Below, in pieces: positions 21,660-22,838 of a stretch of 64,000 nt of DNA. The position numbers and the translations under genes are program-made. The notes under the pieces were generated by a model. That model worked only from the letters and a program-made list of their open reading frames with translations, ran no database searches and was not told the DNA's origin. The first letter of the stretch is position 1, and every line of letters starts with the position of its first letter. Origin of the DNA: Nocardia iowensis (GTDB taxonomy: Bacteria > Actinomycetota > Actinomycetes > Mycobacteriales > Mycobacteriaceae); the NCBI RefSeq assembly GCF_019222765.1, contig NZ_CP078145.1, positions 7,440,001-7,504,000 of the forward strand, given 5' to 3'.

Positions 21660-22838
21660 CTAGGCGGTGGAGAGCACCGTTCCGGCGCCGACGGTGCGGC
21701 CGCCTTCGCGGATGGCGAAGCCGAGGCCCGGTTCCAACGGGACCGGGCGGCCGAGGACGACGGTCAGTTCGACCGTGTCGCCGGGCATCGCCATGGCGGT
21801 GTCGCCGGCGAGCGTCACATCGCCGACCACGTCGCCGGTGCGGATGTAGAACTGCGGGCGGTAGCCGGTGGTGATGGGCGTCCGGCGGCCGCCTTCCGCG
21901 GTGCCGAGCAGGTAGACGCGGGCGGTGAACCCGGTGTGCACCGCCACGCTGCCGGGTTCGGCGACGACCTGGCCGCGGCGGACCTGGCCGCGGTGGATAC
22001 CGCGCAGGAGCAGCGCGACATTGTCGCCCGCCGCCGCGAATTCCATGGTGCGACCGAAGGTTTCGACGCCGGTGACGACCGAACCGAGTTCCTCGCCGAG
22101 GCCGAGCAGGGCCACTCGGTCGCCGAGCCGGACCCGGCCGCGCTCCACCGCGCCGGTGACGACGGTGCCTCGACCCGTGATGGTGAGGACGTTCTCCACC
22201 GGCAGCAGGAACGGCGCGTCGGTGTAGCGCACCGGGATCGGCACGTGGGTGTCGATGGCGTCGAGCAACTCGATCAGGGCGGCGGTCCAGTGCTCGTCGC
22301 CTTCGAGCGCCCGCAGGCCCGAGACCCGGATAACCGGGAGGTCGGCGCCGGGGTAACCCTGGGCGGTGAGCAGTTCACGCACCTCCAGCTCGATCAGGTC
22401 GAGCAGTTCGGGGTCACCCGCGTCGGCCTTGTTGAGGGCCACGACGATGTGCTCGACGCCGACTTGGCGGGCCAGCAGCACGTGCTCGGCGGTCTGCGGC
22501 ATCACGCCGTCCTGCGCGGAGACCACCAGGATGGCGCCGTCGAGCTGGGACGCACCGGTGATCATGTTCTTCACGAAGTCGGCGTGCCCCGGCATGTCGA
22601 TGTGCGCGTAATGCCTTGTCGCCGTCTCGTATTCGACGTGCGCGATATTGATGGTGATGCCGCGCTGCGCCTCTTCTGGGGCCCGGTCGATCCGCTCGAA
22701 CGGCACGAAACTACCGCCGCCGCGCTCGGCGAGCACCTTGGTGATCGCCGCGGTGAGGGTGGTCTTGCCGTGGTCGACGTGGCCCATGGTGCCGATGTTG
22801 AGGTGCGGCTTGGTGCGGACATAGGTCTTCTTGGACAT
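21660..22838 (-). CDS. tuf: Second, divergent elongation factor Tu (candidate antibiotic-resistant EF-Tu)
   Basis: 392 residues, full length, with intact G motifs: GHVDHGKT (19-26), RGITIN (60-65), DMPGH (81-85, usually D-A/C-P-G-H) and NKAD (136-139). It should bind GTP and aminoacyl-tRNA. It is not in the rpsL-rpsG-fusA-tuf locus and differs from the conserved actinobacterial EF-Tu at many surface positions. By my alignment to E. coli numbering, the Arg at 230 (VVTGRVERG) is Ala, the Gly at 275 (ENVGVLLRG) is Ala and Arg373 before FAIREGG is Gly. Changes at 230 and 275 are known to give pulvomycin and GE2270A resistance respectively. The ribosome-binding site is CAGGA, 7 bases from ATG. A long structured leader precedes it. 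The resistance role is inferred; a stress isoform is the alternative. Confidence 0.95.
   Translation of the reverse strand: MSKKTYVRTKPHLNIGTMGHVDHGKTTLTAAITKVLAERGGGSFVPFERIDRAPEEAQRGITINIAHVEYETATRHYAHIDMPGHADFVKNMITGASQLDGAILVVSAQDGVMPQTAEHVLLARQVGVEHIVVALNKADAGDPELLDLIELEVRELLTAQGYPGADLPVIRVSGLRALEGDEHWTAALIELLDAIDTHVPIPVRYTDAPFLLPVENVLTITGRGTVVTGAVERGRVRLGDRVALLGLGEELGSVVTGVETFGRTMEFAAAGDNVALLLRGIHRGQVRRGQVVAEPGSVAVHTGFTARVYLLGTAEGGRRTPITTGYRPQFYIRTGDVVGDVTLAGDTAMAMPGDTVELTVVLGRPVPLEPGLGFAIREGGRTVGAGTVLSTA

What the first reader, a model, noticed from the sequence alone, without database searches (positions are those of the whole stretch)
21660..22838. Second EF-Tu with natural changes at antibiotic-resistance positions
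By my alignment the residue equal to E. coli Arg230 is Ala and Gly275 is Ala, with Arg373 as Gly. In E. coli, R230C gives pulvomycin resistance and G275A gives GE2270A resistance. The gene lies outside the str operon, has all G motifs, and so looks like a self-protective or stress-specific EF-Tu. Producers of elfamycins and thiopeptides carry such paralogues.
Basis: partly seen in the sequence, partly recalled or inferred. Interest (0 to 1): 0.8.

Follow-up and report, generated by a model that had tools for sequence, protein, structure and literature searches.

The report
Drug-resistant spare EF-Tu with leader switch
A Nocardia carries a spare, probably drug-resistant copy of the protein-synthesis factor EF-Tu, of a kind already known in Streptomyces, and in front of it lies a switch that I could not find described (a promoter box, a tiny alanine-rich reading frame and two competing RNA hairpins), which probably turns it on when protein synthesis slows down.

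Summary
The 392-codon gene (minus strand) is a second EF-Tu, 61% identical to the housekeeping copy. Where that copy has R230, G275 and R373, it has Ala, Ala and Gly. These are family traits: 63, 65 and 64 of 65 EF-Tu3-type proteins share them. The gene is the Nocardia counterpart of Streptomyces tuf3, reported as resistant to kirromycin and GE2270A and activated by WblC/WhiB7. Producer self-protection is not supported.

What I could not find described lies upstream. 84 of 85 leaders have a uORF ending at the foot of hairpin P1; 74 of 84 have a WhiB7-type box 43-47 nt before its ATG, predicting a leaderless start. A covarying helix, P2, competes with P1. In 150 Streptomyces genomes, 117 of 117 detected tuf3 genes carry the element. 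I read it as a ribosome-controlled attenuator. The off-state is uncertain: there is no U-tract, and the window's own RNA favours P2 even unblocked.

The parts
21660..22838 (-). tuf3-type second EF-Tu gene, 392 aa (A230, A275, G373 in E. coli numbering)
23100..23105 (-). WblC/WhiB7-type box GAAAAT, 3 nt upstream of the -35 position
   Evidence: box consensus GAAAWY from PMC7157823
23091..23096 (-). -35 position (TCGCGC, weak)
23067..23072 (-). -10 element TACCAT, 7 nt before the uORF ATG, so a leaderless uORF is predicted
22952..23059 (-). upstream ORF, 35 codons, 15 Ala, ending ...D-G-A-R(CGA)-S-UGA
23017..23034 (-). hairpin P0 inside the uORF (CGTCCGC AGTC GCGGGCG)
22943..22953 (-). P1 5' arm, overlapping the uORF stop codon
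22912..22922 (-). P1 3' arm
22924..22934 (-). P2 5' arm, in the loop of P1
22892..22902 (-). P2 3' arm, 53 nt before the tuf3 start codon

Best explanation
The gene encodes EF-Tu3, an inducible spare EF-Tu that binds EF-Tu-targeting antibiotics poorly and can keep delivering aminoacyl-tRNA when the main EF-Tu is poisoned. Two layers control it. (1) WhiB7/WblC with the main sigma factor starts a transcript at a GAAAWY-type promoter when translation is stressed. (2) The transcript begins at, or within a few bases of, the start codon of an Ala-rich leader ORF. If ribosomes translate it at full speed they reach the UGA stop at the foot of hairpin P1 and mask P1's 5' arm; the alternative hairpin P2 then forms and expression stops before tuf3. 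If ribosomes lag (drug-bound EF-Tu, scarce Ala-tRNA, rare GCA and CGA codons), P1 folds first, holds P2's 5' arm in its loop, and transcription runs on into tuf3. Shown here: gene identity, residues, box, uORF, conservation and covariation of P1 and P2, and that they overlap so that a nested fold cannot hold both. Shown elsewhere for Streptomyces: drug resistance and WblC control. Inferred: the direction of the switch, that it acts on transcription, and what it senses.
For: Identity and residues. Box 43-47 nt before an in-frame ATG: relaxed pattern in 74 of 84 leaders (control 171 of 34,903 other positions, and 3 of 231 other ATGs); strict GAAAWY in 51 of 84 (control 48 of 34,903). The own genome has a WhiB-family protein with RGRPRK (L209), as WhiB7 has (recalled). 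In the 74 leaders with a box the uORF has a median of 33 codons and a median Ala fraction of 34% in frame against 6% and 7% in the other frames. Stop at the foot of P1 in 84 of 85 upstreams. P1: 10 of 10 pairs in 67 of 84, 9 in 16, 8 in 1. P2 (best helix of each leader): 39 helix sequences; own pairing -15.6 kcal/mol on average against -11.5 for partners swapped between leaders, best of 20 swaps -12.2. On 78 sequences 97 cells with changes on both sides, shuffled mean 32.6, 0 of 500 shuffles as high; slid structures 12-30. At least half of P2 forms in 22 of 84 free folds and in 68 of 84 when the RNA is blocked up to the 12th base counted from the stop codon. Specificity: 117 of 117 Streptomyces tuf3 genes have the element 3-136 nt upstream, same strand; 8 of those genomes were in the training set. 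One convincing hit in the own genome (E 1.6e-12; next 3.9). Analogy: wblC/whiB7 itself is attenuated through a uORF (PMC11550727, passages).
Against: No U-tract: 8 of 84 leaders have 5 or more T in the 12 nt after P2; the window has 2, so classical intrinsic termination is not shown. The window's unblocked leader already folds into P2 (-35.9 kcal/mol), so P1 would have to win kinetically there. 16 of 84 leaders do not reach P2 in the blocked fold and 13 show neither helix when free. Codon-position variation in the uORF shows no clear third-position excess (6/10/11 columns in 9 sequences, 24/22/23 in 18); RNA constraint could explain this. One of five covariation measures, further pair types, was reached by 9 of 500 shuffles, and the sequences are related, so shuffles are not probabilities. 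10 of 84 leaders have no box by the relaxed pattern, among them the less Ala-rich ...DGLER* leaders (L154, L158, L159, L161, L163). No expression data for this strain.
Confidence: 0.6

Rival explanations
1. The leader acts on translation or mRNA stability, not on transcription: P1 or P2 (or their pseudoknot) changes ribosome access to the tuf3 start.
For: No U-tract after P2 in most leaders. P1 and P2 could form together as an H-type pseudoknot: the gap between P1's and P2's 3' arms has a median of 10 nt.
Against: P2 ends 26-115 nt (median 49) before the start codon, 20 nt or more in 84 of 84 leaders, so neither helix covers the ribosome-binding site directly and the spacing is not conserved.
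Confidence: 0.25
2. Self-resistance gene of an elfamycin or thiopeptide producer.
For: Residues fit resistance; EF-Tu3 of the kirromycin producer S. ramocissimus is resistant (title in reference lists).
Against: No biosynthetic cluster among the neighbours scanned. The single PF14028 match is a class I lanthipeptide enzyme. 28 of 98 genus members carry the gene. A kirromycin non-producer has EF-Tu3 too (PMC6804068, passage).
Confidence: 0.05
3. The leader is a binding site for a protein or ligand (for example EF-Tu3 repressing itself), and the uORF is incidental.
For: Pseudoknot-compatible, strongly covarying structure; uORF length varies widely (28-61 codons in the 74 leaders with a box); no third-position signal in the uORF.
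Against: An in-frame ATG at a fixed distance from the promoter box in 74 of 84 and Ala enrichment in that frame only, a CGA codon before the last sense codon in 72 of 80, and a stop codon placed at the foot of P1.
Confidence: 0.1

Closest known systems
EF-Tu3 / tuf3 of Streptomyces coelicolor (SCO1321) and S. ramocissimus
   Same: Divergent second EF-Tu gene; reported resistant to kirromycin and GE2270A and stress-expressed (passages); WblC regulon. Five named Streptomyces relatives are 76-79% identical to the window protein.
   Different: Here in Nocardia. SCO1321 itself was not available for alignment, so orthology rests on other Streptomyces copies. The passages seen do not describe the leader.
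whiB7/wblC uORF transcription attenuator
   Same: Actinobacterial resistance gene with an upstream ORF whose translation favours termination and whose disruption gives read-through; also acts in amino-acid starvation (PMC11550727, passages).
   Different: Another gene, with its own leader peptide and stems; a leaderless uORF is predicted; no U-tract after P2. The wblC leader sequence was not compared here.
Amino-acid-sensing leader-peptide attenuators (trp type, recalled; Corynebacterium ilvB uORF, PMC11109978, passages)
   Same: An upstream ORF controls the gene behind it; in the trp type a leader peptide rich in the sensed amino acid chooses between alternative stems (recalled).
   Different: Controls a translation factor, not a biosynthetic gene; Ala-rich (15 of 35 codons in the window); no U-tract shown.
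Ribosome-mediated attenuation of ARE-ABCF resistance genes (are5sc, tiaA)
   Same: Antibiotic-responsive uORFs in Streptomyces 5' UTRs (PMC12421871, passages).
   Different: Those uORFs encode 3 and 9 residues and respond to LSAP drugs at the peptidyl-transferase centre; here 28-61 codons, Ala-rich, with the stop at the foot of P1.

Membership tests
EF-Tu (TIGR00485) | Score over the curated cut-off along the whole protein | tested here: met
   572.7 bits, cut-off 522.4, residues 1-389
EF-Tu | Intact GTPase motif residues | tested here: met
   K24, D50, T61, D80, H84, N135, D138 kept
EF-Tu3 / tuf3 | Separate from housekeeping EF-Tu and grouping with Streptomyces second copies | tested here: met
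   The two housekeeping rows stand apart with 100/100 support among 76 rows; 61% to own housekeeping, 76-79% to named Streptomyces copies
EF-Tu3 / tuf3 | Resistance to kirromycin, GE2270A and pulvomycin | not testable with these tools
   Only residues compared
WhiB7/WblC regulon | GAAAWY box 3 nt upstream of -35, and a -10 element | tested here: met
   GAAAAT, 3 nt, TCGCGC, 18 nt, TACCAT
WhiB7/WblC regulon | A WhiB7-like protein with AT-hook in the genome | tested here: met
   L209...RKRPRGRPRK, one of 9 WhiB matches
WhiB7/WblC regulon | WhiB7-dependent induction in this strain | not testable with these tools
   No expression data
Ribosome-mediated attenuator | Translated leader ORF with the stop near alternative stems | tested here: inconclusive
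   ORF, stop position and Ala frame bias present; third-position signal absent; no ribosome data
Ribosome-mediated attenuator | Two conserved, competing helices | tested here: met
   Conservation and covariation of P1 and P2; they overlap, so a nested fold holds at most one; a pseudoknot holding both is not excluded
Intrinsic (Rho-independent) terminator attenuator | U-tract after the terminator stem | tested here: not met
   5 or more T of 12 in 8 of 84; window 2 of 12
Known Rfam RNA family | Match above gathering score | tested here: not met
   Window 22600-23400: 4 sub-threshold hits, best 20.2 bits (cut-off 50) on the other strand
Elfamycin/thiopeptide producer self-resistance | Gene in or near a matching biosynthetic cluster | tested here: not met
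   Neighbours unrelated; PF14028 only as lanthipeptide LanB; elfamycin polyketide clusters not searched

The most novel reading that the evidence does not exclude
An actinobacterial RNA element that I could not find described, present in front of all 117 tuf3 genes detected in 150 Streptomyces genomes and seen in five families of the class, makes a drug-resistant EF-Tu answer to the speed of alanine-codon translation. A leaderless Ala-rich peptide senses shortage of Ala-tRNA and EF-Tu and releases tuf3, so that the factor which delivers aminoacyl-tRNA is controlled by the failure of that same delivery. This sits downstream of WhiB7/WblC, whose regulon includes alaS2 and which is linked to alanine starvation in mycobacteria (title in a reference list).
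Probability: 0.3. Interest if true: 0.75.

Novelty: new variant of a known kind. Interest (0 to 1): 0.5.

Why it matters
EF-Tu3 has been known since the 1990s as a stress-induced EF-Tu (1995 title in a reference list) and later as an antibiotic-resistant one. The passages I saw explain its induction at the promoter only. A second, RNA-level checkpoint read by ribosomes would give a direct feedback: poisoned EF-Tu slows the leader and releases a resistant EF-Tu. The element is compact, closely tied to tuf3, and directly testable with a reporter. It can also serve as a marker for finding EF-Tu3 genes and their relics in genomes.

Tried and rejected
Producer self-resistance: rejected as the main reading. 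A frameshift or readthrough pseudoknot joining the uORF to tuf3: rejected, because the distance from the uORF stop to the tuf3 start varies in length and frame (116, 90, 130, 131 in the first four leaders). The uORF as a functional small protein: unlikely, 28-61 codons with a variable middle. A codon-position test for translation of the uORF gave no support. My first P1/P2 detection mis-assigned several leaders (for example L012, L101-L104) and was replaced, in which L141's best P2 helix still looks unrelated to the others. The first promoter scan required TANNNT and found 14 of 84; the relaxed scan found 74, with its control. MAFFT alignment A1 misplaces P2 in some rows, so probably understates P2. 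A1 holds 78 of the 84 leaders: 3 duplicates were dropped, and L156, L164 and L166, which have insertions between the arms, were left out by me. L169 has no uORF with that stop, but the model finds an element there (E 8.1e-4). The model uses P1 only. The effects of R230C and G275A could not be confirmed. Elfamycin polyketide clusters were not searched and no structure prediction was run.

Full report
What is there. The ORF at 21660-22838 lies on the minus strand and encodes a 392-residue EF-Tu. The genome (one contig, 8.95 Mb) is a Nocardia: the best-scoring proteins that carry a species name are from Nocardia, 96% identical for N. brasiliensis. The housekeeping EF-Tu is at 8123429-8124601, 61% identical.

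The residues are a family trait. Other recalled kirromycin and pulvomycin sites are unchanged. In a tree of 76 proteins the two housekeeping rows stand apart with 100/100 support; the 30 Nocardia rows fall in two sets (13 and 17), the second together with Streptacidiphilus, Kitasatospora and Phaeacidiphilus copies at 100/99. This hints at transfer between families, though other forks concerned have support below the 95/80 mark (89/81, 96/75). The gene is patchy: 28 of 98 genomes of the genus, plus one apparently broken copy (G083).

What is already known. S. coelicolor has this second gene, tuf3, expressed under stress, with a GE2270A-resistant product (PMC12309360, passages). Its EF-Tu3 is kirromycin-resistant although the strain makes no kirromycin (PMC6804068, passage); [quoted passage not shown] tuf3 is WblC-activated; WblC binds GAAAWY 3 nt upstream of -35 (PMC7157823, passages). 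The primary resistance paper (Olsthoorn-Tieleman 2007) was not held. So the protein is a new member of a known kind, and 'self-protection of a producer' is not needed. The one PF14028 match in the genome is a fused lanthipeptide LanB with two LanC genes, and the neighbours scanned are unrelated.

The leader. I read the upstream DNA of 85 tuf3-type genes. 84 have an ORF whose UGA stop is the foot of a hairpin. In 74 of these 84 a WblC-type box (relaxed pattern) lies 43-47 nt before an in-frame ATG, against 171 of 34,903 other positions and 3 of 231 other ATGs; strict GAAAWY is found there in 51 of 84, against 48 of 34,903. In the window the order is GAAAAT, 3 nt, TCGCGC, 18 nt, TACCAT, 7 nt, ATG, so transcription should start at or next to the ATG. 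Leaderless mRNAs come from 21% of primary start sites in S. coelicolor (PMC4895711, passages; its main text does not hold the terms tuf3 or SCO1321). In the 74 leaders with a box the uORF has a median of 33 codons (28-61) and a median of 34% Ala (18-50%) in frame against 6% and 7% in the other two frames; the window's has 15 Ala of 35. In all 84 uORFs GCA is 252 of 996 Ala codons, against 23 of 375 in eight window genes; CGA is 76 of 190 Arg codons, against 21 of 236. The uORFs are related to one another, so these are not independent counts. CGA is the last sense codon but one in 72 of the 80 leaders. A hairpin inside the uORF (P0) is part of a stronger fold than 30 synonymous shuffles give (mean energy of the first 90 nt -40.8 against -34.7, lowest -35.7); its sequence is not the same everywhere (loop AGTC in 29 of 84).

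The helices. P1 has 10 of 10 pairs in 67 leaders, 9 in 16 and 8 in 1. P2 joins the loop of P1 to a segment a median of 10 nt downstream of P1. Its best helix occurs in 39 sequence versions, such as GGGACCTC/GAGGTCCC, GGACCCC/GGGGTCC, GAGCCCC/GGGGCTC, GAGAACC/GGTTCTC and GTGACCCG/CGGGTCAC. Own partners pair at -15.6 kcal/mol on average, partners swapped between leaders at -11.5 (best of 20 swaps -12.2). On 78 aligned leaders 11 of 18 pairs change on both sides (97 cells against a shuffled mean of 32.6, 0 of 500 as high), and sliding the partner by 1-3 columns drops the paired cells from 92% to 42-69%; the count of further pair types was reached by 9 of 500 shuffles. As nested structures P1 and P2 exclude each other; a pseudoknot remains possible. 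Unconstrained folding gave P1 in 49, P2 in 22 and neither in 13 of 84; with the RNA blocked up to the 12th base from the start of the stop codon, as by a ribosome at the stop, P2 appeared in 68 and neither in 16. Against my reading, the window's own leader prefers P2 (-35.9 kcal/mol) even unblocked.

Specificity. A covariance model of the leader (P1 pairs only) gave one convincing hit in the own genome. In 394 genomes of the class it hit 52, once each: the 50 with a tuf3-type gene (E at most 2e-164), and two (G185, G465) with a decayed tuf3 behind it. 46 of those 50 were in the training set or identical to a member of it. The better test is 150 Streptomyces genomes: 117 have tuf3 (E at most 1e-160), 126 have the element, and in 117 of 117 the element lies 3-136 nt upstream on the same strand (8 of the 117 are training genomes). 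The 9 element-only genomes all carry tuf3-derived sequence behind it: cut short, frameshifted, at a contig end, or diverged. In these searches I found no element in front of another gene; over 40 genomes the tool uses stricter filters that lose weak matches.

How it probably works. The anatomy matches ribosome-controlled attenuation, as described for whiB7/wblC itself, where uORF translation favours a terminator and antibiotic stress gives read-through, with uORF control also in amino-acid starvation (PMC11550727, passages). Fast translation brings the ribosome to the UGA, masks P1 and lets P2 form (off); slow translation leaves P1 to form first (on). The direction, the action on transcription and the signal are inferred. 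The missing U-tract (8 of 84 leaders with 5 or more T of 12) means the intrinsic-terminator criterion is not met, so I do not file it as such. A Rho-dependent stop, a terminator without U-tract, or a translational effect are open; P2 ends 26-115 nt before the start codon, which argues against direct cover of the ribosome-binding site. Ala-sensing is attractive because the WblC regulon includes alaS2, listed among aminoacyl-tRNA synthesis and editing enzymes, but the less Ala-rich leaders of some families suggest a more general sensing of translation speed.

Is it in print? Rfam has no family over window 22600-23400. Paper searches, with papers listed of papers found: EF-Tu3, Streptomyces, kirromycin (20 of 124); tuf3, Streptomyces, EF-Tu (17, 4 of 4); wblC, uORF, attenuation (24, 9 of 9); whiB7, leader peptide, alanine (25, 4 of 4); whiB7, alanine, starvation (34, 10 of 34); EF-Tu, leader peptide, attenuator, Streptomyces (35, 1 of 1); SCO1321 (72, 5 of 5); attenuation, uORF, Term-seq and others (73, 9 of 9). 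None of the titles or abstract starts shown describes this leader, and neither do the passages I read from ten papers. Subscription papers on tuf3 from 1995-2007 were not available and may mention the inverted repeats.

Noticed in passing
L225:400-1968 (+) and L224:5744-7310 (-), two Streptomyces genomes: tuf3 is interrupted after codon ~89 (in ...DMPGHADY) by DNA that begins with a large serine recombinase (PF00239, PF07508), and the rest of tuf3 was not found within the 7-8 kb fetched; tuf3 looks like an attachment site for integrative elements.
   Followed up: partly
L212, L213, L221: The leader-model hit precedes a shrunken, degenerate EF-Tu G-domain relic of 200-244 aa that is still an open frame; my scan found no uORF with a TGAC stop in these three, nor in L215.
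   Followed up: partly
L215, L217: Full-length EF-Tu3 copies, about 55% identical, with altered GTPase motifs (for example GHARHGKTT in L215, GHLGHGKTT in L217, and no NKxD in either) behind the leader: possible pseudo-GTPases.
   Followed up: no
G000:C1:4723870-4729550 (L222:9871-15551): Class I lanthipeptide genes: fused LanB (1034 aa) and two adjacent LanC-like proteins.
   Followed up: no
Genus genomes G073, G070, G050, G060, G011, G074, G028, G025, G027: A further EF-Tu type, 56-59% identical to the window protein, in 9 of 98 genomes; not looked at.
   Followed up: no
L120, L121: Second EF-Tu genes close to the housekeeping copy in two Nocardia genomes, 85-87% identical to the window strain's housekeeping EF-Tu.
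   Followed up: no
L223 (G083:C14:178800-181500): A tuf3 copy matched in two pieces (residues 1-52 and 53-306), so apparently broken.
   Followed up: no
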